A DNA stretch of 64,000 nt from Coniferiporia sulphurascens (Eukaryota; Basidiomycota; Agaricomycetes; Hymenochaetales; Hymenochaetaceae), in the NCBI GenBank assembly GCA_002794785.1, contig NBBA01000002.1:2790001-2854000 (forward strand), given 5' to 3'. Positions 27,738-55,918 of the stretch are shown piece after piece; positions within the stretch are counted from its first letter, which is position 1, and each line of letters opens with the position of its first letter. The notes under the pieces were generated by a model that was given only the letters and a program-made list of their open reading frames with translations, searched no databases and was not told the origin of the DNA. A program made the position numbers and the translations under genes.

Positions 27738-28947
27738 ATGTGGAGCATGTACCTGTTGATCCTTGCAGCGGTTATCCTCTGGTGGATATTCTGCCAACTT
27801 GATGATGGCGGGGCCGCGCAACAGTCTTCATCTCGCTGGACAAGTGTAGGAACAAGCGGGAATCATTATCCTCATTACCAGGCCACGGATTCTTCGCGCC
27901 CGACCTCCCACAACCAAGCGTCCACAAACTCCCATTATGCAAGACTTGCGGAAGCCGAGCGCACCCTTCCATCCAGGGCCCCGAACAAGCCGGTCTACTC
28001 GGCTCAGCCATATCCTCAGTATCATCAACCGCACTTTGTCTCTCCTGCGCACAACACGAGGCCACCGCCCCGCAACCCACAATCACACGGTAAGGAACGC
28101 TTGTTTAGAGTGTTTTTTGTGACTGACCATACGGTGTCCCTCTCCCAACAAATCTGTACTGCGAAGATGGCGGGCCAACGCGTGCTAGGGTTCTTCGTAC
28201 TTTATTTCCAAATATCCCTAATATTAAAAATGGGGACTCGAATCGTGGCGCATATGGTGATTACGACGCTGCACTGTACTTTTGTTTCCCCTTGACAATA
28301 TCATACAGATACGAATGATACTAATACCGGCAAAGCCCATACTTTACCATACATGGGGCAGGATGAAAATCCTGTATCGACGCCATTTGTCAATGAATCT
28401 CCCGGAGTACGATACCGCGAGTTGGCGAGGGGTGAAGCGAAGTTGCGGAAGATCGCATTCGAGAACTCACAACGGTCATTTCGCTTGGGAAACAGAGCTG
28501 AGGCTAAACGAGTGAGTCAGTGCGTCTTGTATTTTGAGGGCCCTGCCAATGTTTTGGACGCCTTGCCTATAGCTCAGCGAGAAAGGAAAGCGTCATGATG
28601 AGAAGGTCAAACAATATAACGTTCTAGCAGCGGCAGATATTTTTGCACACAACAATCCGGGATGCAACTCTGAGTCGACCTCCTCTACGCCGCTTCTGCG
28701 GTGTGATTTACATGGCTTGTACGTTAAGGAGGCGTCACAGTATACACGGAATCATCTTGCTCGTTGCCGGAAGGCCGGGATCAAGAAGACGACGCTGATT
28801 GTTGGGAAAGGCTCTCATAGCAAGGGAGGGGATGCAAAAATAAAGCCAGCAATAATGAAGATGATGACGAATACTTCTGATGTAGTTGCCGCCTTCCATG
28901 GGACGAATGAGGGACGAATTATTGTGGAATTCTCAAAGGTCGACTAG
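27738..28947 (+). CDS. Membrane-anchored DUF1771-Smr domain protein S1
   Basis: Exons 27738-28089, 28309-28511 and 28573-28947 give 309 residues in frame. An N-terminal anchor (MYLLILAAVILWWIFCQL, residues 4-21) is followed by a polar Ser/His/Pro/Tyr-rich linker, the DUF1771 helix RYRELARGEAKLRKIAFENS with RAEAKRLSEKGKRHDEKVKQ (about 152-205), and a C-terminal Smr domain (about 228-305). The Smr domain has the two family motifs, CDLHGLYVKEA and LIVGKGSHSKGGDAKIKPAI, and ends GRIIVEFSKVD. Smr domains are nicking or RNA endonuclease modules in MutS2 and several eukaryotic proteins. With the anchor, the Smr domain should face the cytosol (inferred). First of six related genes. Confidence 0.8.
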
Positions 28948-31495
28948 TATGTTTCCATCTTTTTTGTATTTTCGCAGAGTTTTATTAGGCCACTTTCAGT
29001 ACAAGCTGTAGTCCAGTAGTCGTAGTACAAAGTGCAGTGTATTAGTCTATGGTGCCTGTATTTTTTACTTTTGTGTCCGATTCACTATGTATTCCAAACC
29101 CCCTTGTTCCCTGCTGTTTACTTATCGTATATACATAGAGCTGCGACGTTGGATGCTCCTTTTACTCTGATATATATTTCAGAATTATTAGAATCCAGAC
29201 ACGCTGAAATTTTCGCTGAAATTCCGCCAATTCGTGCCAGTCGCTCGAGGGGCAAATCATAGAGCCGAGGATTTACCCCGACCGCAGATCGTCCCAATAC
29301 GGAAAATGCTGATCCAATGCTGTGACCTTTGGTGGCGAACCGCTCATGCCGGGCCGAGAGTTCTAAAAGAGAGTGGTTGCCGAGAACCCGGCACCGTTTA
29401 CTTCAACTACTGTAGTAGTTGGACCCCAACTTTATATTAAGTTACGATATGAACACTCAGTCAGGTCCCACATGACTGATCAGATTCCACACCGGAGCGT
29501 TAGTTGGTACTCCTACAACCGTAGGCAGAGTCAGTGCCCCAATTTGGCTTTTTCGGATGGGCATCGTTCTGTAACTTGAAAGAGTTGTATCAACTTTTTT
29601 TGGCTGTTTAACATCCGTGAGCCGCTCGATTCTGCATCCGCCGCTTACGCGGTATTCAAGCATTTCAAACCTGCAGTCGGGCTTGAGCACGGCAAGCTAA
29701 TAAAAGTCGTTCGCTCCGACAATGGAGGAGAGTTCGTAAACGATAAATTAGCTCAATTCTTTCCTGAAGCGGGAATTACGCACGAAACGACAACTCCGCA
29801 GACGCAATGGAAAATGCACATACTGGGGACTCCTCTCGCGCAGGATGAGGCCCCAGGCGGTGCCCAGAAAACAGCGTCGTGTGGCTATTTGCTCGTTCAC
29901 AAACGCGTCACCCCCAAACACCGCCGTCGACGTCTGCGGAGTGCGCAAAGCCATCATGCGGGATCTCTGAGAAGCTCACTCGGCGCGCCGCGCGCGTTGC
30001 GTCGTTCGCGGCAGGAAGGGGGATCGGCCGGACGAGGAAGAAGCCGGGGATCATCGGAAAAGACGTTCCCAGGGCGAGAAAGAGAAGGAATGAAGACGTG
30101 TCACCGGGGAATAACACATGTGCGAAGGTAGAAAAAAAAGAGGCTGAAAGGCCGAAGCCTGAGAGTGCCAGACCCGTCTTCGATGCTCTCTGCAGAACCA
30201 GTCAGAGATAAAGACAGCGGTGAAGGCAGATAATGATGCCTACCATTGCGTCAGGAAAGCTCTTCGCGGTGGCGTTTACGCTGCTCGTCAGTCCCTCATT
30301 CCCTCCTGCGCAGTCAAGAACGAACACGCGACAATAACAGCGAGCACTACTTGTGACAACCTCTCCGCACTTACATCCGCTTGAGCGGCATCGGGCCCGT
30401 TATAAAAATGGCGAATGCTTGAATATCCAATAAACAAGAAGATAAACCCGCATGCAAGCAATCTTCACGAGAATAACCACTCTTCAGTTCACTAGCCCTG
30501 AGCACAAGATTACACTTACATCCGAGGGTCTCTGCGGTCAACTATCTTTCCCCACTGTATACGCCGACTGCATAGGGGAAGAACTTGTCGGCAAAGCGAC
30601 AAAGACGAGAAAGACATAAAGCGCACTGTTTCCCGCAAGTCCTGTTCGAAATTAATGACTCTGGGTATTATTGAAAACACTAATACATACCAATGACATT
30701 TAGTTTGGTGTGAGATATACGAAGCCGGGAAGCGGGTTGTGGCGCATCAGATGCGAAATGTCAATTCAAGTTACCGTTAGAGGCACTCATATTCGATACG
30801 ATTCGCGTATCATATTCAGCATACCAGAGTAGACCTTAGCATGCAAGTCAACTCAGTCCTTCTGTTACGGTCGACGACGACACGTAGTTTGTGCCTGAGC
30901 TCAAGGATCATTGTGAGCCGAGGCGCCGACAGCACCTTCGGTGCCGTTCCACGACCCCCTGTCCTTGAGGCCATTTAAATTTAGTAAGCTGAAAGGCGCC
31001 CAAGCTACAGCATATGAGATAGGAGTATGTAGATTTGAACGGCCAACGAGCTGGAAGAATGTGAAAGATAAGTACTGCGGCGAGCCGAGGACGGAAATAG
31101 TCTGCTGCTAAAGTCGCAGTACGCGTTCTACAGCCGCTGAGGAAATGACAAATATTAATTACGTAACTTAATACAGTTACTTTCAAGGGCTTACTGATAC
31201 GTTTGTAAGCGCAGTAAAGCATCTCAATTTCTTCAAAGCAACATTACGTAATCCGAGGCGCTCAGTCGACGCGCAATTCCAATTCGGCAACATGACACTG
31301 CAGAGGCAAACGCGTCCTGTCGGCACCGTTCATATGAATTAATGAGCTAATTGAAGCGAGTCAGCCCTGTTCCTATGGCTTCAAGATCAATCATCGCAAT
31401 TTCCGGTATAAAGACTCGGTCCTGAATCCATATACGCCAGCTTTCAATCAGTGTCCAGTGCAGCGGTTACCGTCGAACACCTCATCTCAGTGATC
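28948..31495. other. Intergenic region with shared 3' blocks and a retroelement fragment
   Basis: The first 450 bp hold blocks shared with the flanks of S4 and S5 (GTTTACTTATCGTATATACA at about 29118; GCAGATCGTCCCAATACGG at 29283). A block at 29495-29630 recurs at 34170-34310. A Copia integrase fragment follows. From 29.8 to 30.2 kb there is an Arg/Lys-rich open frame I cannot identify; from 30.2 to 31.5 kb I see nothing. Confidence 0.5.
29610..29815 (+). mobile_element. Ty1/copia integrase fragment
   Basis: Translates to FKHFKPAVGLEHGKLIKVVR, then SDNGGEFVNDKLAQFFPEAG and ITHETTTPQTQW, the conserved part of the Copia integrase core including the second catalytic Asp (SDNGGEF). No LTRs, protease or reverse transcriptase are seen nearby and the frame is short, so it is a relic. 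Confidence 0.8.
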
Positions 31496-33644
31496 ATGCT
31501 TTCAAAGTTGCCGACGACTATTCCTTTCAATCTATCCGCTGTCGATGTCTTCGGTCTTGCTATTGGATCATGGCTGTTATACAAACTCTCCCAGACTGCG
31601 CGCATGCGTGCAAAGACGACAAAGCTGCGCGGTCCCCCTGCGTCTAGTTGGCTCTTCGGTGTCTCCCAAGAGGTCTTCCAGGGCGATTCCGCTGCCACAT
31701 ACTACGAAAAGTGGGCCGACGAGTACGGGCCAGTATACCAGATCCCAGGGCCCTTCGGTTCCCGCCGCACTGTCTTGACCGACGCGAAGGCTATCACCCA
31801 CTTCTACTCCAAAGAGACCTTCGGCTATGTGAACAGCACGTTCACCAAAATGGCTATATCCAATCTAGTAAGAGATTTCCCTACCCTTTATGAACCATGA
31901 CTCTTATGCATCAATGAAGATCGGGAAGGGACTCCTTTGGGCGGAAGGCGAAACCCATAAACGGTGGCTACTGATCTATATGCAAATCGAAATGATGGTG
32001 GTCTCACGAAACGCCTCACTAGACAGCGCAAGACTCTCAACCCTGCTTTTAGCAATGCCGCCATCCGGGATTTAGTACCAGTTTTCTACGATTCTGCCTA
32101 TAAGGTTGGCCTATCAGAGGATGTAAGAAACGTTTCCCCTGATGTTTCGTTTTTCCAGGTCAAGAACGCATGGGACGCACTTTTTCCCTCCTCTGGCTCC
32201 GAAGAAGTCATCGTAAATGTTCAGAAATGGTAAGCCACAGGTCCCATGCATTTTTTTTCGCAAGTCGACATTTGATATTGCAGGATGAACTCCGTTTCGC
32301 TTGATACTATCGGGATCACAGGCTTTGGCCACGATTTCGGTGCTCTCGAGGGTCGCCACTCAGACATCGTGGAAATATTCGACTCCTTTGGCACGCACCC
32401 CCCTCGAGGTATTGCCATCATCGTTCTACTCCTCGGCCCTGTGCTCCCCTTCCTCTTCAAACTCCCTACGTTCCACCAGCGTAGGGTTCAAAAGCTACAC
32501 AAAGCAATAGGAGTGATCGCGGATACTCTTTTGGAAAAGAGCCGAGCGGAAAAGGAAGCTGGATTGATTGGTGACACCGGTCGGTCCATGATGGGTTCCC
32601 TACGTATGTTTTTGCTTTGAAGATGTTCATCGTGCTGATTGCCGTCTAGTTAAGGCAGAGAGTTCGCAATCTGATCTAAGACTTTCCAGTGAAGAAGTCC
32701 TGGCCCAGGTATTTCAGATCCGTACTTAACGTCCCTTCATACTTCCTAAGCCATTTTTAGATGAAAGTGTTAATATTGGCAGGCTACGAGACGACTTCCA
32801 GTTAGTGCTTTTGTATCTTTCTCTTTCGTGTTCCACGACTGACGAACGAACTTACAGTTAGTCTCACGTGGGCGCTCATTGAGCTCGCCCTGAACCCGGA
32901 AAAGCAGGACAAATTGCGCGCGGAACTTTCTGAATTCGCGGGGAGCGACCCTTCGTTCGAGCAGCTAACCAACGGTCTTCCCTATCTTGACAGCGTTACC
33001 CGCGAGACGCTTCGTCTGCACTCTCCCGTCGGCCAAACCAATCGCCTAGTACGGATATTCGCAATATAGGCACAGTGCGTTTAGTTAACTGCTTGTTTTC
33101 TTTCCTCTACCATAGGCTGCGTATGACGACGTCATCCCGCTCAATACACCCGTCACAACCGCATCTGGGGCGAGCGTTGACCGTATAACCATTGCGGGTG
33201 GGGCTGCGCTCGTAGTACCCATCCGGGCAGTCAATAAATCCGAAACGATCTGGGGAGAGGACGCAAAGGAGTTCAAGCCCGAGCGCTGGTTGGACGGCGA
33301 GGCTGGTCTGACGGTTAAAGCTAAGGAGATGCAGGGCTACCACCATTTGCTAACGTTCGTCGACGGACCGAGATCATGCCTGGGGCGCAATTTTGCGATT
33401 GCTGAGTTCAAGGTGCGTTTGGTTTTCGCGGTGGCTAGTGCGATCCTTACTTTTGACTGATCTTGCCTTTCCTTGTCTCCCTTTTTACTAGTCTGTCCTT
33501 TCCGTGCTCGTACGCAACTATGTCTTCGCCATGCGCGACGGACCTGACACCAAGCTCGACCGGGTCACGACGATCCTACCCCGTCCCAAAGTCGCGGGCG
33601 AGGAAGGGTACGCCTTGCCGATGCGTGTGCGACGCGTAGAGTAG
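31496..33644 (+). CDS. Cytochrome P450 monooxygenase
   Basis: Haem-thiolate monooxygenase anchored in the ER. Ten or so exons; several joins were checked (for example HKR/QRKTLNPAFSNAAIRDL and VKNAWDALF). After a membrane segment near VFGLAIGSWLLYKLSQT and a Pro-rich hinge (LRGPPASSWLFG), the protein has the C-helix region EGETHKR, an I-helix ILAGYETTS (A-G-x-E-T-T), the K-helix ETLR (ExxR), PERW, and the haem loop FVDGPRSCLGRNFAIAEF with the Cys ligand. The length, about 550 residues, is normal. The CYP family number and the substrate cannot be assigned. It sits inside the Smr array between S1 and S2, on the same strand. Confidence 0.9.
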
Positions 33645-34521
33645 GATTTTGTTCAGGATAGGATGGTACGATGATCTCCTTTATTGTTGTTGAAGGTAAT
33701 ATGCCGGTGTAACAGATCGACAAATTATACAAGGGTTGCTGATATGCTTGAGTACGCACGAGTAATGGGTCATCAACGGGCCTCATGTATGTATCAGGTA
33801 CGCGCAACAGGTCAAATATGCCCGCGATCTCGGAGCGAAGCTTTCCCATTAAGTATTTCTTGCGGGACTCGAAGTCTTCAGGGTCAAGGTCAAGTTCAAG
33901 TTCAAATTCAAGCGCGGGGGCTGATCACCTATCATTTATTTTGTGGCTTCTAAATTATGTCATGTCTATATGTAAGCACATGTAAGCAAGTAACGAAATG
34001 GGAAGATGGCTACTTCAAGTTAGCTGGTTTGCCATGTGCGAAGTTACATAGATTTTCTGTAGATACTTTTCTGGTTACGGAGGCCTGCTTTTCTATAAAG
34101 CACTGCCTACATGACGCTAGATGATCACTGCAGCAATTAGATAACTGTGTCCCACATGACTGTTCAGATACCACACGCAGCTACTACCGGGGCGTTGGTC
34201 GGTACACCTGCGACACCAGTGCTCCAGCTTGGTATTTTCGGATGGGCATCGTTCTATAAAGAGTTGTATCGAGTTTGTTTGGCTGGTAAACGTCCGTGAG
34301 CAGTTTGACTTTGTAATGAATATCATTTCTGTCCTAGGTTCAAGTCTGATTGAGAGTGCCAAGGTCTCGTTAATACTGGTAGTTATTGGTTGCAGGGTTT
34401 CACTAAAAAAAACGTGCGTTAGTGGTGTAGTACCGAGGTAAAGTAGTATAACGAAACTCTCATGGCCCAGAGTCGTCATGGAAGAGTATGCAGTTTCTGA
34501 TGCGCTCAAGAAGTCAGGGCA
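33645..34521. other. Intergenic region with a block duplicated from 29.5 kb
   Basis: Contains (TTCAAG/GTCAAG) short repeats at 33883-33915. Positions 34170-34310 match 29495-29630 (ACACCTGCGACACCAGTG..., TTTTCGGATGGGCATCGTTC). No gene. Confidence 0.5.
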
Positions 34522-34533
34522 CCGTCCTAATTA
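34522..34533 (+). promoter_or_regulatory. Shared upstream element of S2 (CCGTCCTAATTA)
   Basis: Half of the palindrome seen before S5, about 90 bp before the S2 ATG. Confidence 0.4.
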
Positions 34534-34616
34534 CCAATATTAATGCAAGCGAATTGAGGCTTCATACTCAGGCGTGCCATCAGTCCAGTTTCTCGCTCAC
34601 CTGATTCCTACCACCA

Positions 34617-35972
34617 TGACCTCTCGGTGGATTCGTGCTGCTGCCCACGTGGCCGGCCTCTCGAGCGCAACGCCCTTGTTCATTTTTGCAGCATCGGCCA
34701 CCATTTGTGTGTCAAGCATAGTTCTTCCGGCCCTCTGGAAGAAGTTTACGAGTCTGATGAAGACGCAAAAACAAGCAGTGGTGACGGTGCCAGTGAAGAG
34801 GCCGTATTAACGACGGACAGAGACGTAAAGCATGCGCACTGCTGTGAACACTGTCTTCGCTATCACCCTGAAGCCTCCCCGTGCCTGGAACGCTCCCTGC
34901 ATGACCAAGTGTCTACATTCACCCACCGTACTGAATGCAAGGATACAATGTCCCTGCATCCCTCCAGGGTCGTCATCCAGCCGCTTTACTCTTCCGACTC
35001 TCACTCCAACTTGCACGCTGAAGGCTCTGCATGCCTCAACCAATTGTCCCAGGCTCCACATACCCATGGTGAGAACACTTATTCGGGGCTTTTTATGCCT
35101 GGAGCTTAGCTTAGAGCTAACTTGGGGTGCACTGGGTAGATATGTATGATAAGCCTCTCTCAGTGGATCAGAACCAGGAACATATTTTCTCGCATGAAAC
35201 AAATACACATGACAGTGTAGATCATGTTTTATTGCCAATTGTCGCGAATAGTACGATTGAAGATTTGTGCCATGGATCATATGGTGATTGCAATCTTGTA
35301 CTATATTACTCCCGCTTGACGATACCGATATAAAGGACTATTTAATCATGACTGCAGTGTTGCTCCTGACGGTCCATACAACCACCCACTTAAAAGCAAT
35401 CTGCATACAAAACCGTTCGGGCGTTATCCAAGAGAGAGGTATCGCGTAATGGCAAACGAAGAGGCGATATTGCAGACCGATGCTCTCAGGTACTCCCGTC
35501 TATGTTTTGAAGTGGACGAAACTGCTGAGGGTAAACGTGTAAGTCTGCACCTTATATCACATCTGAAACCTTGCAAACGTTCAGAGCGCCTTGTCTATAG
35601 CTCAAAAAAAAGGGGAAACGCCATGGGAAAATGCTCAAACAATACAATGCTCAAGCTGCAGCGGAGATTTTTGCGCACTACAATCCGAAATACTCCTCCA
35701 ACCCCACGTCTCCTCCACCTCGGAAGTGCGATCTGCATGAACTACACATCCAGGAGGCTTTATCGTATGTGCAGGGCCATCTTGACCGTTGTCGGAAAGC
35801 CGATCTTGAGAATACGATACTGATTGTCGGAAGAGGCACCCATAGTCTATCAGGGGATGCAAAAATAAAGCCAGCGATAATGAAGTGGTTAGCAAAAATC
35901 CCTGATGTGGTTGCCACCATCCATACTAAAAACAAAGGACGGGTTGACGTGGAATTTATAAGGGCTAATTAG
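34617..35972 (+). pseudogene. DUF1771-Smr paralog S2 with apparent frame breaks
   Basis: The N-terminal exon starts MTSRWIRAAAHVAGLSSATP and has a membrane helix (LFIFAASATICVSSIVLPAL). The linker that matches its paralogs (ESDEDAKTSSGDGASEEAV) continues in a different frame, so a one-base shift lies near 34740. A second exon (35140-35283, YDKPLSVDQNQEH) matches exon 2 of S5, but its donor phase does not fit the next exon, which reads RYRVMANEEAILQTDALRYS (a degraded DUF1771). The last exon 35601-35972 is intact, with KKKGKRHGKMLKQYNAQAAA, CDLHELHIQEAL and LIVGRGTHSLSGDAKIKPAI. The Smr end looks conserved while the front looks decayed. A missed splice or sequence error is possible. Confidence 0.55.
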
Positions 35973-36272
35973 CGTGCCCGTGGTCCTCTGTGGATCATAA
36001 TGTAATGCATTTGTATATACTTATTTATGTACGTAGACATATGTAAGCTCGGAGATTACCGATCCAGCTTCAGACTAAGAAACGGCTCAGACAGATGCTA
36101 AAGTACGTGGCTCACTAATTAATAAAGGCCACCGCTTCACCAGATAATTATGCCGATTTGATACATAAGCGGAGGCAAAACCGAGGCGAATCAATAAATA
36201 TACCCGGTTGGCAACTCAATGGCCTCATTGCAACTTGCAGACGCCGACACACTCATACTGTGTGTAGATAAA

Positions 36273-36286
36273 TTAGGACGTCATCG
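36273..36286 (+). promoter_or_regulatory. Shared upstream element of S3 (TTAGGACGTCATCG)
   Basis: TTAGGACG copy about 75 bp before the S3 ATG. A second shared word, GACGCCGACRC, precedes it here and before S5. Confidence 0.4.
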
Positions 36287-36349
36287 ACGTGAAGGTACAT
36301 ATTCGGACATGACGCTTTCAACTTCGGCATTCACTCTAGTCCTACCCTC

Positions 36350-37395
36350 ATGTTTGCTCTTGCGCGCGCTCTGCCTCTAGTCGCCCTCGCGGGGGCGGCG
36401 ACGTTTGCTCTCCTTGCAGATTACTGGAACAGTCGTCGTGGACCTGGTGATGACAAGGATGCAGGTGCCGACGATGCGAGTGAGGAGGCTGGACTATCGA
36501 CTTCTTCTTATATGGCAGAGCACCGCCGACAGGATTTTTACTGTGACTACTGCAACGACTACCACGCTACGAGCTTCCTAGTCCAAGCCTGCCGAATCGG
36601 ATCATTTTCACAGGGAGTCCATGATGACGCCGGCAGGGACCCATACCATGGCGCATATAGTAAGCACGACGTCGTACCGTTGGCTCTTTCCCCTTGACAA
36701 TAATGCCATGCAGGAGAGCCCACGTACCGTACTGCCACGGATACCAATCCTACTAATGACTTACGCAACTGTTCCCATCAAGTCTCGCTGGAATATGCAG
36801 AGCAGGAGTACAGATATTATCCACTTGAGCCAGTCGAAACCGAGCTTAGGCAAGGGGAGAAGTATCGCGAAATGGCAGGGATTGAGGCAGGGCTACGGAA
36901 TACCGCTTATGAGGAATCCCAGCAATCTTTTAAGTCAGGAAGTAGAGCCATGGCTAAACAAGTGAGTCAGCATGTTACGCATTGTTGGAAATCTTGCCAA
37001 CATTTTGGGTGTGTCACGTACAGCTCAGTAACAAAGGAAAGCTTCATGATGAGAAGGTCAAAAAATATAATGCCCTCGCAGCAGCAGCATTTTTCGCGTA
37101 TCACAACCCGGGATATCACTCCAGCTCGGCATCTCTGCCGTTGGCGCAATGTGATCTGCATGGGCTATACGTCGAGGAAGCTTTGCAGTTCGCGCGGGTC
37201 CATCTCGCCCATTGTCGGAAAACCGGACTCAACATCACAACGCTAATCGTCGGAAAAGGCTCTCACAGCCAGACAGGGGGAGCAAAGATCAAACCGGCAA
37301 TGATGCGAATGCTCGCGGATACGCCTGGTTTGAGGGCCACCTCACATGAGATCAACGAGGGACGCATTGTTGTAGAGATATTGAGGTCTTGTTAG
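36350..37395 (+). CDS. Membrane-anchored DUF1771-Smr domain protein S3
   Basis: Exons 36350-36659, 36714-36961 and 37024-37395 join in phase to 309 residues, the same length as S1. The membrane segment is ARALPLVALAGAATFALLAD (residues 5-24). The linker is acidic (DDKDAGADDASEEAG) and then has an unusual Cys/His/Tyr patch, DFYCDYCNDYHATSFLVQAC. DUF1771 reads KYREMAGIEAGLRNTAYEES, and the Smr domain CDLHGLYVEEALQFARVHLA and LIVGKGSHSQTGGAKIKPAM, ending GRIVVEILRSC. All Smr motifs are present. The CxxC pair in the linker is not seen in S1 or S4; S2 has a similar HCCEHC. A possible metal site is conjecture. Confidence 0.8.
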
Positions 37396-38646
37396 TACGC
37401 AGTTACTACTTCAAGTGATTGTCGAAGTTTTTTCCGTACAGCTCCATTAGTTTACTAGTTACCGTTTTTCTGCTTTCCGTAATGCCTTCCTATTACAAGT
37501 CAATAAGTAAATATCGATTGTAGTCGATGATGTTTGTGTTTTTTGGGCGTCTTCACTAACTGTAGTTCCGTTAATTCCTTCTATTTACCTATGTACAAAA
37601 ACTGCGGCAGTAACGCATAAACCTCGAATTCTTGGAGCCGAACAGGCGAGCTCTATTTTGTACTTACACCGCAGATCCTCTTAGTTTGGGAAGTGTGGAC
37701 CTTGTGCTGCGATTTGCGGCACAGACTAGAATTAATGTCTGAGAACTTGGCTCACAACTACCACCGGCAATTTTATAAAAAATTTGACCGTGGAGACCTT
37801 GCATCCTGTACACATGTCATACCGAATGAACAAGTAGTAGGTTTCTGGTTCCATTATAATGGTTGGTGAGTTGTGAGATCCTCAATTTTCAGCGGAACCA
37901 AATTTCGAGCTGAATACCAAGAGTTGAGAAGGTAAAATCCGCGATGCTTTATGTTTATAAATTTTGATCTGGATTGACCTTTCATGCCGGTTAAATGGCC
38001 TACGCAGCTCTTGTTATTCTTCCGGGCTAACCTCAGACCGCAAACCTTGAAGTTTCCCGGAAGGCAACGAAGTGCATCTAAAGGGTCTTGGAATGCTGGC
38101 AGGACGCACGTCTCCGTTCGGCTGTTTCTCCGTACTCAGCCGAACCTTGACCTTTTTTTGCTATCGGATGGTCATCTGTGGGAGCGCTGGTGCTGCGCCA
38201 TCGAGATCATAGGATAAGTCTAATTTGGTCTGGTGCAAAGCGCACAAAAGTGTTGTAACGAGATCATCAACTCCATTTCAAACTCAGATTTGGCTCAGAT
38301 GGATGCCGCAGCCGCAGCCGGATCCTGTGTGCAGAACTACTGGATACACTAAACATGTACTCTTTGATGTGTATCTACAGCTTTGAAATACAACCGCGCA
38401 TAATGGCGCCCACCGCTTAGCGAGGGGGGGATGCTGCTGCACGTTACATGCACTTTTGTCAACCCCAGCTGACGACCATCACTTAACTTGATCTCTGTAG
38501 TTGCGGCTGCTTACAAAATTAGGAAGAACTAGTAAGTGCATTTGGGTTTTGGGCGTCTTATCATCCGTGCTTAATTACATTTGATTGATTTGACAGATTA
38601 CCGCAGTCTTACCGCAGCAAACAAACGTTCATGCATCCTGGATGAA
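37396..38646. other. Intergenic region with duplicated blocks
   Basis: No gene. Two short blocks (TTTTTTTGCTATCGGATGG at about 38151; CTCAGATTTGGCTCAGATGG at 38284) match the region upstream of S1. Confidence 0.5.
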
Positions 38647-38661
38647 TTAGGTTCGTCCTAG
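38647..38661 (+). promoter_or_regulatory. Shared upstream element of S4 (TTAGGTTCGTCCTAG)
   Basis: Imperfect palindrome about 85 bp before the S4 ATG, closest in form to the S5 copy. Confidence 0.45.
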
Positions 38662-38740
38662 CCGCCGAGAAGAGTCAAACTGAAGCTGCATTATAAAGAC
38701 ATGCCTTCGTCAACGTCGCGCCCACTTTAGCCCTGCCACC

Positions 38741-39917
38741 ATGTGGATTCTACTCGCTCTAGTAGCGGCTGTCGTCCTCTGGTGGATATTTTACGAGCCA
38801 GATGACAAGGACGGGAATGCCTTTGGTAAAACCACACTACCGACTCCATCCCTCTGGACAGACCACTGCCATCATTCCTACTCTGGCGTAGATTCCAGGT
38901 GCTTAACACGCCCTTCCCCAGGACAGACATCCACATACCTCTATAATACGAGGCATAGAGGAACACAGAGCAGTCTATCCCCTAGAGTTGCCACTAAGCC
39001 GGTTTACTCAACTCGGCCCTATCCCCAGTACTCTTACCAATCATATTTAGGGGCAAGTACTCCGAAGTCCAATATTAATGGTAAGAAATGCCCCTTCGGG
39101 ATTGTTCACCGCTTATAGCCTATTTTGTTAACTGACTCAGAGCACAATGAACAGATCCATACAATGGACCACCTAAAGCAACTCTCTATCGAGAAGAGAA
39201 TCCGTTGCATGGCAGATAGTGGCCTGATAGTGATGATCATGCATTATCAGAAAGAGGCTCGGACATTACTGACGAGGACGGGTACCAAGGTGAGTATAGT
39301 ACTTACAATACTACAATACCCTCTTGTTTCTACTTGACGGTGCCGTCACGCAGATTACACCCTAGAGCCAGAAAGACCTGGGGAGTGGTGCCGCGGAATG
39401 GCGAGGACTGAGGCAAAATTGTGGAAGACCGCCATCAAGGAGTCCCAACTGGCTTTCCACTCGGGCAGGAAAGCCGAGGCCAAACGCGTAAGTTGGCGCT
39501 TCTACAGTAGTATCTCCATAAATCTTATTAATTTTCTGGATGTTTTGGCTGTAGCTCAGCGAAATAGGAAAAGACCACGGCAAAAAGGTCAGGGAATTTA
39601 ACGCTCGTGCAGCGGCAGAGATTTTTGCGTGCAACAATCCAGATTACAAATCCAGCTCTCCATTTCTGCCCTTCTCACAATGCGATTTACATAGCCTATA
39701 CGTCGAAGAGGCTTTGCAGTACGCGTTGAATCATCTTTCCCGCTGCCGGTGGGCCGGAATCAAGAATACGATGTTGATTGTTGGAAAAGGCTCCCACAGT
39801 CAGGCAGGGGGTGCAAAGATTAAACCAGCGATAATGGAGATGCTGGAGAATGTTTGCGATGTCGAAGCCAATATGCATGAGACAAACGATGGACGTATTG
39901 TTGTACAGTTTTTGTGA
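38741..39917 (+). CDS. Membrane-anchored DUF1771-Smr domain protein S4
   Basis: Exons 38741-39080, 39354-39487 and 39555-39917 give about 278 residues. The anchor MWILLALVAAVVLWWIFYEP is nearly identical in style to S1. The linker has Ser/Thr/Tyr and repeated KPVYSTRPYPQY, as in S1 (NKPVYSAQPYPQY). DUF1771 reads WCRGMARTEAKLWKTAIKES with RKAEAKRLSEIGKDHGKK, and Smr CDLHSLYVEEALQYALNHLS and LIVGKGSHSQAGGAKIKPAI, ending GRIVVQFL. The open stretch 39125-39295 inside intron 1 corresponds to exon 2 of S5 but no longer joins in phase, so I skip it. Confidence 0.75.
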
Positions 39918-40889
39918 GACTTTTAGTGCGTCTTCATTCTTTTCTGTATCCTTTGGAGAATCTATCAGAGCTGCTTTCTATACAAGCTGTAACAACGTAA
40001 AATACGTCTTCCTCTGCCATCTAACTATGTTGGCGCCCTCTAAAGGCGCAAAGGATACCATATGTGTAAAGTAGTCTATGACTCTATGGTATCAGATTTT
40101 TCGGTGTCCTATTATTACTGATTCTGTTGTTTACTTATCGTGTATACATACGAGCTGCCCTTCTGTATGCTCCTATTTCTGACGTCTACATACACCAAAT
40201 GCTTGAAGCCAAACATGACTAACACTTGTCCCGAGGCTCAACCGACTCGGGCCTCCAGCTCGGCGGCAAACCATGAACTTGAAGCGAACATCCGCAAATC
40301 GTCCCAAATTCGGTAACTTACCCACCACTATGATCCGCGGCGCGGGCCGGTATGGTTGTTCCTCCCGTTTCCTGAACAGCACTTTCACTCGGTGGCCTTC
40401 CCAAGTCTTGCAGCTCGTCCGGGAGACGTCCTCATCTCATACAGATATGGATTACAGCCTAGAATTTGTGATTAGTCAAGAAGGACACGCGAATAGGAGA
40501 TTCAAACCGATAGCAGAGAGCCAGCACGCACTGAGTCGCCCGGTATTGACAACCGGAGAAGATAGAGGCATACATGATCGCGCATATCTTGTTCGCTTAT
40601 AGGATGCTACACTAGAAACTGAGCATGTCCTCGGAGACTCGGGCACTTCTGCGTGCTTAAGTTTCAAGATATATTTGCGTGTCCGGTGACTCTGGTCATG
40701 TTTAGTACGCGCTTTGGAAGCCCCCATGGTGTCCATATTTTTGTTCAGAGATGTGTTGAGGGCAATTCCCGAGGCTTTTGGGACCAAGCTATTCGAGACG
40801 GTTGAAGTATGAGCTTGATGCTGAGTTCGGCCGTTCGGAGTTAAAAAAAGGGTTCAAAGCATTTTTTCTTGATTTAGAAATTGGAAAGC
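39918..40889. other. Intergenic region with 3' blocks shared with S1 and S5
   Basis: TTTACTTATCGTGTATACATA (about 40132) and CGCAAATCGTCCCAAATTCGG (40292) match the S1 3' flank at 29118 and 29283. No gene. Confidence 0.5.
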
Positions 40890-41480
40890 GAAGACGCGTC
40901 CGAGCCGTGCAACCCTAACCTGCTCTCCGCAATGGCGCTCTCTCCGACCGTATCCTGCCTAGAATCTCTAGTCGCAAGTTGGCAGCTAATTTGAGGGGCA
41001 GGCGTGTAATGCGAATACCTTTACTTGGTGTCCGCGGGTGTACGGAACGGTGTACAAGACCGATGTCGGTGGCGGTCCCGCGGGTTGTCAGTGGCAATCG
41101 TGGGCGCTTTAGGTGTGCCTCATTTCTAGATTGTATCGACTGCAATTAAACATCGCTTAACCATATTATAGGGCGTGCATTCGGTCTGTTGACGAGCTTT
41201 TGTAAATGACTTCGGTGGAAATCAGTGATTCCGGCTGCGCACGCCAATTGAGCCCGCCTAGGACACATTTTTCGAACCGCGTGGGCTCGATCACGGGCGG
41301 CGGACGCTGTAAGGCTAGTGGGTGGGTACATGATTGAGATAATGTGAAGAAGTGGCGGGTCATACGCACCGTGGCGAGATTCTGAGGTGCGGCGTGGCCT
41401 CGTACTGTTCACTCGAGACTGGAAACCGGATATCGGGCCTTTTGCTGACTTTTCTACTACGAGATTGACCATCAGGTGTT
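40890..41480 (+). pseudogene. Decayed copy of the COQ6 5' region
   Basis: Runs collinear with 49240-49800 of COQ6. Matching stretches include GCGTCCGAGCCGTGCAACC, TGTCCGCGGGTGTACGGA, GGTGTACAAGACCGATGTC, GGTCCCGCGGGTTG, CGAACCGCGTGGGCTCGATC and ACGGGCGGCG. Compared with COQ6 it has many substitutions and small deletions and no open frame through the FAD motif, so it cannot encode the enzyme. Confidence 0.7.
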
Positions 41481-41499
41481 TGCTTCATCGCGTCGTCGG

Positions 41500-42220
41500 T
41501 GCCGTCGCACTTCTGTTATGGACCTTCGAGCCGAGATCTGAATACTTCTTGACTCTAAAGGCCTCGCAAGATCCTTGTAGAGAGGATACGCCGTAAATCT
41601 GATCGGATTCCGGTTGTCGCTAGCTGCGTGCCCCTGTCTCTAAAGTGCGGACGTGCCATGGAAGGGATTGTCTGCGTCCAGACGAGCTTCATCAGCAACT
41701 CAAGTGCCCTCTGACTTCAGAAGGTCTCAGATGTCGCTGATGGCAGCAGTGGTCAAGGGCGCCATTTTCTAAACTGGATCTCTCTATGGGATCCTTGTCC
41801 CCCGCTTGCTACGATGAGCCTGCGCGCCTTCACCTTATGAGGTAGCCCTTTTGAACTGAGTGAATATATCAAAATGCATTTATTCATGGGGAAACTTCCC
41901 TGCATTAGAAGACGATCTTGCAGGCGCTTATCTGAGGCGAGGCCGTACCGTCCATCGGCCGGTAACGGTGACTTATTACTGGCTCTTCGCGCGATACAGT
42001 ACCTACGCTTACCGCAGGGCAATGAATGGGCAAGAATCTCGCAAGCGCGACACTGGGGAAAGACCCTCTCCGGCTCGAGAGGTGTTGTACATAAACTACC
42101 TGCAACATCGGCACCGGGTTCTGGCCTGCCGCGTGCCTGCGCCCCCTCCGAGGCCGCCGGCTGATGCCCACTAGCGGCGCTTCGGGCTTCGACGTACACG
42201 CTCACGGCTTCTAAATGGAT
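41500..42220 (-). pseudogene. Decayed copy of the 5' half and promoter of an MLKL-like gene
   Basis: Matches gene A over about 23.83-24.50 kb in the same orientation: CTTCATCAGCAACTCAAG (41686) with CTTCGTCAGTAACTCAAG (23984), GATGTCGCTGATGGCAGC with the SGDTSR region, CTTCCCTGCATTAGAAGACG (41895) with CTTCCCTGCATTCGAAGACG, and GCTTCGACGTACACGCTC (42187) with GCTTCGACGAACACGCTC. Frames are broken throughout. Confidence 0.65.
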
Positions 42221-42664
42221 GCTGCTTTGAAAACCCTTTCGACTGACTTCCTCCTAGCATCCCGGTATCGGAGACTGTCCCATCGGAGTGCTGCAACAGA
42301 ATGCTGCCTTGACTGGAGACGGTCTGATCCGTTTCGCTGTTCGAACGTAGTTGAGAGGGAAGCACGGAGGGATTACATCACACTCTCTAGCGATAGAGCC
42401 CGAATGGCATGCTGCCTTTGATACCCAGTTCTCAGTTTTCTTATTTCCCTGTAATTGGATAGGCCTTCCTTTTATCGACGCGTATGCCGATCATACGTAC
42501 TGGACTATATATGAGATAAGTACTTTGAGGGAAAATTTACGGGCGGGCCGGGGCCCTTAGATTAGAGATGCTAGGCTTCTGTTTGATGCGAACCCGGTCT
42601 GGCGCCGCAAGTGCTCGCCTCGTTGCAAACGCCGACGCGCTGCCAGTGAGACTCGAGGGATAAA
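42221..42664. other. Intergenic region upstream of S5
   Basis: No gene. The last 60 bp include AACGCCGACGCGCTGCC, also seen before S3 (GACGCCGACACACT). Confidence 0.45.
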
Positions 42665-42679
42665 TTAGGACGGTCCTAA
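42665..42679 (+). promoter_or_regulatory. Palindromic upstream element of S5 (TTAGGACGGTCCTAA)
   Basis: Two 7-bp arms, TTAGGAC and GTCCTAA, around one G. Best-preserved of five copies, 72 bp before the S5 ATG; typical of a dimeric regulator's site (inference). Confidence 0.55.
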
Positions 42680-42750
42680 CCGCTTATAGATCGAATTGAA
42701 GTCATACACTCGGGCACGCCCTCTTCGATTCGCGTTCACTTCCTACCGCC

Positions 42751-44164
42751 ATGCTCGCTCTCGACACCAAGGGGCGGGCCGCGCCCTATCTCCTTCTTGC
42801 AGCGGCGGCCTCTGTTTCTGTGTCAGGCGCGCTCCTCTGGAGCCTTTGGAGGCGCTTCCGTAGGCCTCGCGACGAAGGGCGCGCGTCCAGCAGCGATGGC
42901 GGTAACGAGGCCGTGCCATCGCACGTGCCGCCGGCGCAGCCGATTTCACCCCATCGGGCGGACACACACGAACACGGGCACCACCACCACCACCATCGTT
43001 CTTCCAGCTCGAAGCCCTCGCGCTCGACCCGTTCCTCAACCAAGAGGGCACCCACGGCCCTCCATGCGGGTCACGGCGAGACCGAACGTCTTTTACCCTC
43101 CAGGGCCGCCACCCAGCCTGTCTACTCATCCCACTCTCACACTCATCCCCATCATTCGCATACCGACAGCTCCGCACATCACGAACACTCGTCCCAGATC
43201 TTGCAGTTCCATGGTAAGAGGCGTTTATTTGGAATGTTCCGTTCCGAGGGATTGTTAATCTTTCTGACTTTTGAAACGCGACTACTAGTTACACATGATG
43301 AGCCCCTCTCGATAGATCAGTATCAGGAGGAAAATCCGACGCGTGAAAGGAGGATGCGCGGTAGTGCCAATCCTACTTTATCCCCGGGAGCCTCCGGCCA
43401 TCATAGCAGAGACTCGTATCATCATGGTAAGTGCGGTGTCACTATTATATGCAATATCTGTCTGACAACGCTGTTACGCAGGAGGATCCATCCATCGCGC
43501 TGTCACGGATAGCGCAGTCGTCGATGACTTCAGCCGACGTTTGCACCAGAACTCTCTCAATATTTTGTCGGGAGTCGAATTTGGAGGGCCAGTTGATGCC
43601 GTGTATGATGGCCCCGGAAAGCATTATCGTGAACTGGCGAGGGATGCGTTGAGAATGAGGAAGGTTGCCTTGGAAAACTCCCAACGGTCTTTTCGCTCAG
43701 GCAGAAAAGCCGAGGCTAGACAGGCAAGTCTATCCCCGCTCAGGAATTTCTGTATTTTCGAAAAAGTCGCCAATATGCTTTATCTGTAGCTCAGCGAAGA
43801 AGGAAAGCAGCATGAGGATAGGGCCAGACAATATAACGCCCAAGCTGCAGCAGAGATTTTTCAATGCTACAACCCAAGATACTACTCTACCTCCTCGACG
43901 TCACCGCAGTTTTCGCGGTGCGATTTGCATGGATTGCACGTGGAAGAGGCCCTACAGTATGCACGGGAGCATCTCAACCGCTGTCGGCAAGCCAGGGTCG
44001 AGAAGACGATGCTGATCGTTGGGAAAGGCTCTCATAGCCAAGCAGGTGGCGCGAGGATCAAGCCGGCAATAATGCAGATGATGGCAAATACCGGCGGGGT
44101 GATAGCCGCGCTGCATGAGAAGAACGAGGGATGCATCGTTGTAGAGTTTTCGAGAGGCTATTAA
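42751..44164 (+). CDS. Membrane-anchored DUF1771-Smr domain protein S5, longest of the close paralogs
   Basis: Exons 42751-43213, 43289-43426, 43482-43723 and 43790-44164 join in phase to about 405 residues. The anchor is YLLLAAAASVSVSGALLWSL (residues 13-32), followed by RRFRRPRDE, a positive stop. The linker is His/Ser-rich (HEHGHHHHHHRSSSS, SHSHTHPHHSHTD). Exon 2 (THDEPLSIDQYQEENPTRER) is intact only here and in S2. DUF1771 reads HYRELARDALRMRKVALENS; Smr reads CDLHGLHVEEALQYAREHLN and LIVGKGSHSQAGGARIKPAI, ending EGCIVVEFSRGY. The intron after exon 3 starts with GCAAGT where the other paralogs have GTRAGT, a GC-AG intron. Probably closest to the ancestral gene. Confidence 0.82.
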
Positions 44165-45128
44165 TGCGTCTCTCCCTTTTTGTTTTCTTGCAAAATCTGT
44201 CGAGGACTCCATCTTCTCTGTGAGCTGTAATCTTGTATATATACCGTCTGATGTTATCTCGTTTACCGCATTGTTTTCTCGTAGTTATTAGCAGAATGAA
44301 CGCCGCATGATATATCTTTATAGTAGTGCCTGCGTCCTCGACAGGAAGTGCTGTGTACATATTGCATTCAGTACTATTTTAATCCTGTCGGGCCTTGCCG
44401 TTCGTTGGCCCGATTAACAGACGCGCTATACAAGGTCGCCTTGATTTCCTCCCCATTATTACGGATCTCTCACACTTGATGAAACAGCATTAGAATCTAC
44501 GTGTATAGAACCTTGATGAGGTTCAGGAATCGCTTTCTTTTTTACTCGGGTCCTGAGTCCTGTCCGATCCCGCGGCCCGGGATCTGCCTCGCAGATCATC
44601 CCAATTTGAGAAATGGCGATCTTTTTTCTACGAGGCTTTTTGCCCCACACGTTCTTTTGTCGGAACCAATTCAAGTCTAACTTTCGGCGGGAGCTTGGCA
44701 GACTATGAACCTCTTTATATCAGTATGGTTTCCTGCTTTTGGGGGGCATTTCTAGTAGTTTGTGTACTACTTCTCAGGTCAGCGTCTACTATTGGTATTT
44801 CCGTCTTTAGCTCAGTTACGGGCGAACATCGTCCTAAAGGTCCTAGTAAATTCTACTACCAGTACTCAGGTCTGTGGTTCCCTACGCAGTCGATTATAGT
44901 CTTATCAAGCACCCGAAAGCCCGGTCATTTGTGATGCAGCTCAGGACCGACAAATACGAACTACATGTATATCCCACCTCATTTCAGTCTGGGCCGAACG
45001 CGTACGTCATATATTGGTAACATCGATATTAGTATAACCAACGCCAATTACCGCTTTATCTCGAACCATAAAATACTATTGGGCTGTGGCCTGCCACGAA
45101 CGGCCGGGCTCCCAACATCGCCACCCCG
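44165..45128. other. Intergenic region between S5 and S6
   Basis: GCAGATCATCCCAATTTGAG at 44595 matches the S1 and S4 3' blocks. CGTCCTAAAGGTCCTAGTAA at about 44830 resembles the shared upstream element but lies about 300 bp from S6. No gene. Confidence 0.45.
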
Positions 45129-46762
45129 ATGGTGGACGTACTATACCGCCAATTCTCCACCTTTTTGTCTCGATACGACGTCCTGCAGCCAGTCCGAGTC
45201 CCGGTGGTTCGTCGACTTCAAATTAGTGGAACGGTTTTGCGCTCGCTGAGTCACTCGGCTTCGGTTCTCCTGAGACTTGTTTCTGCCACCCTTGCGCTCT
45301 GGCTGTGTCTGCACGCGCTGGAATCCTCTGGACTGTTTGCGCGTCTTTCGAAGAACGAGGGAGGGAGCGTAGCCATTCATTCCCATCAGACGTTTCTGCG
45401 CGATGTTAAGAAGAGCGAGGATATGCCAGTAAATGCGGACGCGTTCGAACCTGACGGGAACAAAGAGCTGCCGATGCACCCAACCCAACATCTATCCACC
45501 GAGGCTACCTCCGTTGAGCAAACTCCGGATTTGGAAGGTCGGGACTCGGAGCAATGTCCCAGTGCGATTGCAGTCACGCCGGTTTCTAATCATGGACGTA
45601 GATATATAAATTTCAAAAAGGGTATGCATCTAAATCGCTTAAGTTGCTATACGGGGTTAAATGTATGGATACACGGTTTTTTTTAGGAGTGCTGCACTTA
45701 GCGGACGAAGACGATCCCGGAACCTTTGAAGAGGAGCTCCGGTTGCGTGGTTGTAAACGCTCGGAGGTCAGGTCGGACGGCACAGCTCAAGACGACCTGG
45801 AGGCTAGCCGGGCTTCTGTAAACTCTGGGCAGGGAATACGGGTGTACCAATCGCAGAAGGTACACTTTGAGTTGCCATCGCTTAGTACCGAGTCTAAGTT
45901 CCCTGGTTTCAAAAGCCCTTGCGTTCACGTCTCGGACGTTTCTCTCCCCCATGGTCCCTGGGAGGCTACTGCGTCAAAAGAGCTGAGGGGCAATAATGAC
46001 TCGGATGGCCCGGAATCGACCAATTTTCAGGCTGCAGCAGCCGATATCCCTTCAGACGAGGTTACTCTAGAAGGACAAGAACTAACAAGTGAAAAGGATA
46101 AAAGTAGTGGATACGAGCACTCGTTTCCGTTGCCAGCCTCATCTAGCTTTAGCCACTCAGGGAAGTCGAGTCAGAATATTATGGATTCAACACACAGCGG
46201 CGAGCTCGGGACCTTTGATTCCTTGGACGCTCTCCTCCCCCCATCCATGCATAGCTCAGAAAGGGGACTGGACTACGAGTCTGATACAGGATCAGGTGTA
46301 ACCAAGGACTCTCCCACCGCCCGAAGCTCTGGTGTTTCCCACCTGACCCGACTTACCCAGAAGGCAAGGTCGCTACACAGGCTGGCCTTTCAGCACGAAA
46401 AAAATGCCGAACAACTAAGATTCCGAGCACACTGCATTACTTTCTTGGCCCATAACCGTCAATACAACACGTACAGCCCTGCGGGCCTTGCACAATTAGA
46501 CCTACATCAGCTACCAGTTGACGAAGCACTGGTATTCACGAAGCTGCATTTAAATAAGTGCAGGCGGAAGGGTATAACCACGACTAGGATTGTCACTGGG
46601 CGTGGTCTTCATAGTCCCCATGGGAAGCCGAGAATCAAGCCTATGGTCGAGGAGGAACTGAAGCTCCATACGGACTTGAAAACCTGGCAGTTAAATCCCG
46701 GATCCGTCGGCATAGTGTTCTTACGCGACGAGACACTGGCTGGGAAGGTGTCCTCCACTTAA
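45129..46762 (+). CDS. Divergent long Smr-domain protein S6
   Basis: Two exons, 45129-45597 and 45687-46762, give about 514 residues. A hydrophobic segment at about 42-62 (SVLLRLVSATLALWLCLHAL) suggests a membrane anchor after a basic N-terminus. A long acidic, Ser-rich disordered region follows. A helical LTQKARSLHRLAFQHEKNAE stretch stands where DUF1771 is in the paralogs, then comes Smr with LDLHQLPVDEALVFTKLHLN and RIVTGRGLHSPHGKPRIKPM. The DLH and G-R-G-x-H motifs are kept, but the glycine after DLH is Gln. It converges on TRM82 with 180 bp between stops. It may be the founder or an older relative of S1-S5; which is not settled. Confidence 0.75.
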
Positions 46763-55551: not shown

Positions 55552-55918
55552 TGTGGTCGCTCACTGGAGGAAGAGTACTTGAGTACGCGAAGGGTGCTGA
55601 GAAATATGGTAGAGCGTTAGTCACCCGCACGTGTTCCGGCGCGCCCAGGGATTCTAAGGGAATATTCGCCCTATGTTGGGTCAAAGTTTTATGCTAAAAA
55701 GCTTTAAGCAAACAAGAGCGAGCCCGGGAGGTGACACAGCAAGCTTGAGGCTTGTTAAAGCTCTTGCACATGAAAGGCAAGGTCATCTTTTATTATATTA
55801 CAAATATTTGGTCCTTGGATTTCATCTAGTAATTCGGCAAAGTTGCGACACATGCACTGCAGTGTGCACCGTAGATAATGTTAGTGCTCTGGATTTCCGC
55901 AGGCGGATCCTCTGCGCA
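55552..55918. other. Short intergenic region
   Basis: About 370 bp between the ERV1 start and the end of the phosphoglycerate-mutase-like gene. No gene; it holds the ERV1 promoter. Confidence 0.45.

What the first reader, a model, noticed from the sequence alone, without database searches (positions are those of the whole stretch)
27738..46762. Tandem family of six membrane-anchored Smr-domain genes
Six plus-strand genes within 19 kb share one architecture: an N-terminal membrane helix, a low-complexity linker, a DUF1771 helix and a C-terminal Smr domain with DLHxL and VGKGSHS-type motifs (S6: TGRGLHS). The anchors and linkers differ strongly between copies (acidic, His-rich, Tyr/Pro-rich) while the Smr ends are nearly uniform. 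Smr domains are nucleases in known proteins. A recently expanded set of Smr nucleases held at a membrane, with fast-changing linkers, is not a system I know. The pattern would suit recognition or defence functions, but that is inference.
Basis: partly seen in the sequence, partly recalled or inferred. Interest (0 to 1): 0.88.

Follow-up and report, generated by a model that had tools for sequence, protein, structure and literature searches.

The report
Tandem membrane-anchored Ypl199c-like Smr nuclease genes
A fungus carries a row of old, diverged gene copies for a predicted RNA-cutting enzyme tied to membranes; the enzyme family is known and a membrane tether looks typical of it, so this is a lineage-specific variant and not evidence of a new defence system.

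Summary
The tandem array is real and larger than reported: six plus-strand Smr genes lie in the window and three more about 66 kb upstream. Four (S1, S3, S4, S5) have a membrane helix, linker, DUF1771 and Smr domain. In S2 the anchor is out of frame with its linker; S6 has an internal helix and no DUF1771 match. The copies are not recent: dS between Smr exons is 0.96-1.56, dN/dS 0.17-0.28. S1, S3, S4, S5 pair one-to-one with Coniferiporia weirii M0805_004608, 004606, 004605, 004604. Linkers change faster than domains, but the His-rich S5 linker is 86% conserved, so an arms race is not supported. The family is the fungal DUF1771-Smr kind. Yeast Ypl199c is its best-known member: S-acylated, near the 40S head, supporting nonstop decay. 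Of 55 other relatives, 49 carry a putative tether signature, against 3.3 in shuffles. Most likely these are membrane-bound mRNA-surveillance endonucleases whose tether became a transmembrane helix and which multiplied by birth-and-death. Nuclease activity, topology and substrate are inferred.

The parts
27738..28947 (+). S1: anchor helix (residues about 1-19), Ser/His/Tyr/Pro linker, DUF1771, Smr; exons 27738-28089, 28309-28511, 28573-28947; 309 aa. A remnant of a second linker exon lies in intron 1.
   Evidence: Splice models; Pfam DUF1771 56.9 and Smr 37.7 bits; ortholog P0001; helix
34616..35972 (+). S2: hydrophobic helix at the start, but its frame stops at about 34808 and the linker continues in another frame; last exon 35601-35972 (Smr, VGRGTHS) intact. 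Probably a decaying copy.
   Evidence: Frames; Smr 40.4 bits
36350..37395 (+). S3: anchor, acidic/Cys/Tyr linker, DUF1771, Smr; exons 36350-36659, 36714-36961, 37024-37395; 309 aa
   Evidence: Pfam DUF1771 55.1 and Smr 29.9 bits; ortholog P0004
38741..39917 (+). S4: anchor, linker, DUF1771, Smr; exons 38741-39080, 39354-39487, 39555-39917; 278 aa. A decayed linker exon with an in-frame stop lies in intron 1.
   Evidence: alternatives; Pfam DUF1771 57.3 and Smr 31.8 bits; ortholog P0002
42751..44164 (+). S5: anchor followed by WRRFRRPR, His-rich linker, DUF1771, Smr; exons 42751-43213, 43289-43426, 43482-43723, 43790-44164; 405 aa; third intron is GC-AG. The most conserved copy.
   Evidence: Pfam DUF1771 51.8 and Smr 35.9 bits; 96% Smr and 86% linker identity to P0003
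45129..46762 (+). S6: divergent copy, internal hydrophobic stretch (46-64), long Ser/acidic linker, Smr with TGRGLHS, no DUF1771 match; exons 45129-45621, 45687-46762; 522 aa
   Evidence: Smr 34.4 bits and no DUF1771; no homologue at E 0.001
28573..28947 (+). S1 last exon (end of DUF1771 plus Smr domain), the conserved exon unit shared with 35601-35972, 37024-37395, 39555-39917 and 43790-44164
   Evidence: Same intron position in S1-S5; dN/dS

Best explanation
S1-S5 are a tandem, birth-and-death family of fungal DUF1771-Smr proteins (Ypl199c kind) in which the usual lipid tether or short hydrophobic helix has become an N-terminal transmembrane anchor; S6 is a distant Smr cousin. The anchor holds the protein in a membrane, probably the ER, with linker and Smr domain in the cytosol, as in P450-type N-terminal anchors. 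The flexible linker lets the DUF1771-Smr head reach membrane-bound ribosomes, where the D-x-H and GKGxHS residues cut mRNA on stalled ribosomes. Different anchors and linkers would place the copies at different sites. SHOWN here: family, architecture by prediction, orthology, age, purifying selection on the Smr exon, tether signatures in relatives. INFERRED: membrane identity, topology, nuclease activity, ribosome target, division of labour.
For: Pfam DUF1771+Smr in four full models. Profile match to human N4BP2 2vkc over the end of DUF1771 plus Smr, E 4.1e-14. AlphaFold model of the S1 ortholog: helix 2-20 (pLDDT 76-82), linker without structure (mostly 38-52), DUF1771 helix pair 96-98, Smr fold 80-96 except the block 311-320 with the GKGSHS loop at 66. 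The top three Foldseek matches are Smr proteins, none below E 0.001, best 1.6e-3. DLH and GKG/GRGxHS in all six; in yeast Cue2, alanine at D348, H350 or R402 had modest effects, the combined D348/H350 change abolished cleavage, and R402K had no discernible effect in an overexpression reporter (PMC6598757, passages). Tether as family trait: 49 of 55 other homologues show a CaaX-like end (19), hydrophobic N-terminus (27) or hydrophobic Cys-bearing tail (10); shuffle mean 3.3, maximum 7 of 55 in 200 rounds. Ypl199c is listed as S-acylated by Akr1 (PMC5364179, passages), is near Rps3 and supports nonstop decay redundantly with Cue2 (PMC8583833, passages), and interacts with the sensor Wsc2 (PMC7466973, passages). 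dN/dS 0.17-0.28. S5 has a strongly positive flank after its helix.
Against: No expression, localisation or nuclease data. Charge flanks suggest a topology only for S5 and the S2 helix; S1, S3 and S4 are ambiguous. The proteins show no CUE domain, the ubiquitin reader of Cue2/NONU-1, so how they would find stalled ribosomes is open. S6 does not fit (no DUF1771). The loop with GKGSHS is the least sure part of the modelled domain. The genome keeps other Smr genes, one with a typical DUF1771 (C3:1213310), so the tandem copies may do something else.
Confidence: 0.5

Rival explanations
1. Membrane-held antiviral or anti-transposon nucleases: the copies cut foreign RNA at membrane replication sites, and linkers diversify under conflict.
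For: Tandem array, copies with different anchors and linkers, an integrase-like fragment inside the array (29580-30131, below Pfam's cut-off), one decaying copy.
Against: Old copies with one-to-one orthologs, purifying selection on Smr exons, an 86% conserved S5 linker. No defence protein among the 7 of 20 neighbouring ORFs that Pfam named. No copy-number difference between species shown.
Confidence: 0.08
2. Neutral birth-and-death: one constrained copy (S5) carries the function while S1, S3, S4 drift and S2 and S6 decay or have gone elsewhere; the array has no collective role.
For: Very unequal tip lengths to the orthologs: S5 0.033+0.025, S1 0.034+0.091, S3 0.13+0.18, S4 0.14+0.11. S2 frame break. 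Linker exon 2 decayed in S1 and S4.
Against: S1, S3 and S4 keep open frames, active residues and anchors, and so do their C. weirii partners; pairwise dN/dS is 0.17-0.28.
Confidence: 0.25
3. The proteins are non-nucleolytic RNA or ribosome binders at membranes, such as tethers or septal-pore factors, the Smr fold serving only to bind.
For: B. subtilis MutS2 splits stalled ribosomes without mRNA cleavage (PMC10897456, title and start of abstract in search listings). SppC of a septal-pore-plugging study has CUE, DUF1771 and Smr (PMC10023807, passages).
Against: D-x-H and GKG/GRGxHS are kept in all six copies. SppC carries a CUE domain, which these proteins lack.
Confidence: 0.12

Closest known systems
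Saccharomyces cerevisiae Ypl199c (DUF1771-Smr; S-acylated by Akr1; nonstop decay)
   Same: DUF1771 with a family-2 Smr domain (PMC3200294 table); membrane tether
   Different: Lipid tether instead of a transmembrane helix; no long N-terminal linker and single copy (recalled). I recall no CUE domain in Ypl199c, though one passage says that NONU-1 and its homologs have CUE domains (PMC9870110)
Agaricomycete DUF1771-domain proteins (Suillus, Pisolithus, Jaapia; Armillaria P0009 and P0058)
   Same: Hydrophobic N-terminus, often Pro/Gln-rich linker, DUF1771, Smr with GKGxHS; the two Armillaria proteins have a TM-grade start, P0058 checked by Pfam
   Different: Most have a short amphipathic or Cys-bearing N-terminus or a CaaX-like end; they fall outside S1-S5 in the tree (branch 94/96, just under the program's mark of 95)
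Cue2 / NONU-1 / N4BP2 (no-go and nonstop decay endonucleases and their human relative)
   Same: Smr domain with D-x-H and GxGxHS; N4BP2 also has DUF1771 (PMC3200294, passages)
   Different: CUE domains not found here; no transmembrane anchor known to me (recalled)
Coniferiporia weirii M0805_004604, 004605, 004606, 004608
   Same: One-to-one orthologs of S5, S4, S3, S1, each on a contig of 75,963 bases with neighbouring locus tags, so presumably one contig
   Different: The C. weirii S1 keeps a linker stretch whose remnant lies in intron 1 here; no S2 or S6 ortholog was returned (all of limited reach)

Membership tests
Fungal DUF1771-Smr (Ypl199c kind, family-2 Smr) | Smr domain over curated cut-off | tested here: met
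   6 of 6 genes, 29.9-40.4 bits against 25.7
Fungal DUF1771-Smr (Ypl199c kind, family-2 Smr) | DUF1771 directly before Smr, S1, S3, S4, S5 | tested here: met
   51.8-57.3 bits against 28.7 in the four full models
Fungal DUF1771-Smr (Ypl199c kind, family-2 Smr) | DUF1771 directly before Smr, S2 | tested here: inconclusive
   Only the last exon was given (second half of the domain): 24.0 bits, under the cut-off
Fungal DUF1771-Smr (Ypl199c kind, family-2 Smr) | DUF1771 directly before Smr, S6 | tested here: not met
   No DUF1771 match up to E 0.1; S6 is filed only as an Smr protein
Fungal DUF1771-Smr (Ypl199c kind, family-2 Smr) | LDxH and TGxG-type motifs of family 2 (PMC3200294) | tested here: met
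   DLH and VGKG, VGRG or TGRG followed by xHS in 6 of 6; C replaces the L before D, and V the T, in five of six
Fungal DUF1771-Smr (Ypl199c kind, family-2 Smr) | Membrane tether | tested here: met
   By prediction only: TM-grade helix in S1, S3, S4, S5, weaker case in S6, out of frame in S2; tether signature in 49 of 55 relatives
Fungal DUF1771-Smr (Ypl199c kind, family-2 Smr) | Endonuclease activity, nonstop-decay role | not testable with these tools
   Residues conserved; no assay possible
Cue2 / NONU-1 | CUE domains | tested here: not met
   No CUE match in full models of S1, S3, S5, S6 and S4, up to E 0.1
Ire1-type membrane endoribonuclease | Kinase and RNase (KEN) domains | tested here: not met
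   No such Pfam match; only a comparison of mode of work
Rapidly diversifying defence or recognition family | Recent expansion and positive selection | tested here: not met
   dS 0.96-1.56, dN/dS 0.17-0.28 on Smr exons; one-to-one orthologs. Linker dN/dS was not tested: no C. weirii DNA was at hand

The most novel reading that the evidence does not exclude
Membrane tethering is an ancestral, working part of the fungal DUF1771-Smr family, and this fungal lineage has turned it into a set of transmembrane endoribonucleases, each anchor and linker assigning the same cutting head to a different membrane pool of ribosomes, ER-bound ones first: an organelle-specific branch of nonstop/no-go decay, comparable in logic to Ire1-dependent decay but with an unrelated nuclease.
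Probability: 0.25. Interest if true: 0.65.

Novelty: new variant of a known kind. Interest (0 to 1): 0.4.

Why it matters
Ypl199c-type proteins support nonstop mRNA decay, yet why they should be tied to membranes is not explained in the passages I read. The finding that most relatives sampled carry a tether signature, and that one lineage has transmembrane helices there and multiplied the gene, makes a testable claim: these nucleases act on membrane-bound ribosomes. If true, mRNA surveillance has a dedicated membrane branch in fungi.

Tried and rejected
Recent expansion and arms race: rejected on dS, orthology and linker conservation. Loss of nuclease function through R-to-K in VGKG: rejected, K is the usual residue in the family (51 of 55) and R402K had no discernible effect on Cue2 in an overexpression reporter. 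Secreted-protein reading of the N-termini: not favoured, since WWIFC or WRRFRRPR follow the helix with no obvious cleavage site (by eye, no predictor run). I first called the gene at C2:2080759 Cue2-like by eye; Pfam finds no CUE domain in its long frame, only a weak DUF1771 (16.1 bits, under the cut-off), so I withdraw that name; it stays as a row label.

Led nowhere: whole-protein search with S6 returned nothing at E 0.001 (only the 7,992 candidates sharing most words were scored). The alignment search was swamped: 7,995 candidates scored, 7 hits at the E 1e-10 that I had set, and P0003 was not among them, so it says nothing on breadth. Absence of other Hymenochaetales among the hits is therefore weak evidence. 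The Smr tree has few columns (130) and its bootstrap had not settled; S6 and the C2:2080759 gene sit on long branches and their place is unsure; one homologue (P0056) was dropped by my motif filter, so 58 of 59 homologues are in it. The upstream element is not above chance by count (8 found, 5.9 expected). dN/dS of linkers between species could not be computed. The middle of S4 allowed 78 splice models under my settings, of which 15 were printed; I chose the exon-skipping model because it parallels S1. PADLOC gave no match. Searches for print on such arrays or family: (listings, and passages of ten papers); nothing seen there describes one.

Full report
What is there. The window is G000:C2:2790001-2854000 of a 39.3-Mb assembly in 31 contigs. 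A six-frame search of that genome with Pfam Smr gives 12 matches, all over the cut-off: six in the window, three in tandem at C2:2747314-2751237, and single ones at C2:2080759, C3:186670 and C3:1213310 (such counts are lower bounds). The nine array genes are all on the plus strand. tblastn at E 0.001 with nine queries (four full models and five last exons) against the window and nine neighbouring stretches found no other member (stretches L009 and L021-L028).

Gene models. S1, S3, S5 and S6 splice cleanly, and S4 does if a decayed linker exon is skipped. S1, S3, S4 and S5 share an intron inside DUF1771 (A-K/R-R/Q, then LS) and the same last-exon unit; the S2 last exon starts at the same place. 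S5 has an extra linker exon of 138 bases, flanked by introns of one phase. In S1 a stretch in intron 1 is still readable and resembles the linker of its C. weirii ortholog, but I see no AG acceptor at its start; in S4 the matching stretch contains a stop. Because phases match, such an exon can be lost without harm to the domain frame, one simple way in which linkers came to differ. In S2 the helix frame and the linker frame differ.

Domains and fold. Smr is over cut-off in six of six; DUF1771 is over cut-off in the four full models S1, S3, S4, S5; S6 has none. A profile of seven cluster proteins matches human N4BP2 structures (2vkc E 4.1e-14, 2d9i 4.3e-10, 3fau 6.3e-10). AlphaFold on the C. 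weirii ortholog of S1 (35-sequence alignment) gives helix 2-20, a linker without structure, a DUF1771 helix pair and an Smr fold; overall pLDDT 67.9, pTM 0.50, and only 66 for the block 311-320 that holds the GKGSHS loop. Foldseek's first three of 529 matches at E up to 10 are a MutS2 model, YdaL and an Smr domain, at E 1.6e-3 to 1.3e-2, none under 0.001; the rest of the 50 rows shown begin with rubrerythrins and were not followed up.

Anchors. The best 19-residue window means are 2.15 (S1), 2.11 (S2 helix frame), 1.85 (S3), 2.07 (S4), 1.88 (S5) and 1.93 (S6). Shuffles of the stretch examined (first 90 residues, or 64 for S2) reach these in at most 0.2% of 2,000 cases for S1, S3, S4, S5, 3.1% for the S2 piece and 19.5% for S6. 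Only S5 and the S2 piece show a clear positive charge after the helix (net +4 each), suggesting a cytosolic C-terminal part; for the others this is inference. The S1 and S4 N-termini resemble P450-type ER anchors (recalled).

Age and selection. Among 57 homologues of S1 at E 0.001 (of 1,517 candidates) the best four are Coniferiporia weirii proteins with neighbouring locus tags. In the Smr tree of 69 rows they pair with S1, S3, S5 and S4. Identity S5/P0003 is 87% anchor, 86% linker, 90% DUF1771, 96% Smr; S1/P0001 56, 66, 90, 85%; S3/P0004 69, 43, 79, 69%; S4/P0002 60% over 88 residues of the first exon and 73% in the last exon (gap columns not counted). Paralogs S1, S3, S5 here are 20-50% in anchors, 22-33% in linkers and 60-65% in Smr. 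Ten pairwise comparisons of the last exons of S1-S5 give dS 0.96-1.56 and dN 0.25-0.37, ratio 0.17-0.28 (Nei-Gojobori; dS near saturation). So the duplications behind S1, S3, S4, S5 predate the split from C. weirii, with constraint on the Smr part.

The tether is a family trait. I asked of the 55 homologues outside C. weirii (53, two) whether they carry a CaaX-like end, a hydrophobic N-terminus or a hydrophobic Cys-bearing tail (thresholds mine): 19, 27 and 10, together 49 of 55; shuffled sequences give 3.3 on average and at most 7 of 55 in 200 rounds. Two of the six misses (P0005, P0014) still end in FLFKCLKQCF. Homologues are related, so 49 is not 49 independent events, and some are incomplete at an end (P0053, P0057). 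The genome's own gene at C3:1213310 appears to begin MAFLESLFRFVLNALCG (open frame read by eye). Five of the 55 reach 1.6 in their first 40 residues: the two Armillaria proteins (1.81, 2.65) and P0021, P0044, P0056 (1.63-1.71). The Armillaria pair falls outside S1-S5 (branch 94/96), which suggests, without proving, separate origins of such anchors.

Literature seen, as passages only: Cue2 (PMC6598757; PMC9841427), Ypl199c (PMC8583833; PMC7466973; PMC5364179; PMC9870110), Smr review (PMC3200294), SppC (PMC10023807), and two without bearing on the verdict (PMC4556806, PMC4574140). Nothing was read in full. The passage in PMC9870110 credits NONU-1 and its homologs with CUE domains, which these proteins lack.

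Verdict. A real tandem family, correctly seen in outline, belonging to a known kind and older and more ordinary in evolution than proposed. The new points are the transmembrane form, the tandem multiplication with a dispensable linker exon, and the family-wide tether signature.

Noticed in passing
G000:C2:2746000-2751500 (L009): Three more Smr genes (U1-U3) in tandem on the same strand: U1 with GRGNHS and coiled-coil-like and acidic parts (by eye), U2 GQGKHS, U3 GRGIHS. Their full gene models were not built, so anchors are untested. A cysteine-rich, RBR-like frame lies next to them on the minus strand (by eye).
   Followed up: partly
window 27640, 34523 (minus), 36271, 42663: ATTAGGACG-like element about 80-100 bases before the starts of S1 (one mismatch), S2, S3 and S5 (palindromic AATTAGGACGGTCCTAA at S5); not above chance by count, but positioned alike.
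   Followed up: partly
window 29580-30131: Integrase-like fragment (rve, 25.2 bits, below cut-off) between S1 and a P450 gene.
   Followed up: no
window 31412-33457: Cytochrome P450 gene within the array between S1 and S2: Pfam match in 33116-33457 (56.2 bits); the front part is assigned by eye.
   Followed up: no
window 43724-43789: GC-AG intron in S5 at the position where S1-S4 have GT-AG introns.
   Followed up: yes
G000:C2:2405648-2405836 (L014): Strong DUF1771 match (62.7 bits) without an Smr match nearby in the same genome.
   Followed up: no
G000:C2:2080759 (L010): An Smr gene with a long N-terminal part, TGRGTHS and only a weak DUF1771 match; no CUE domain by Pfam.
   Followed up: partly
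window 7684-9237, 47669-48247, 50189-51004, 54931-55560, 60774-62123: Neighbours: SUZ-domain protein, WD40-like frame (19.4 bits, far below its cut-off), FAD-binding protein, Erv1/Alr protein, DEP-domain protein; 13 of 20 ORFs scanned had no Pfam match.
   Followed up: partly
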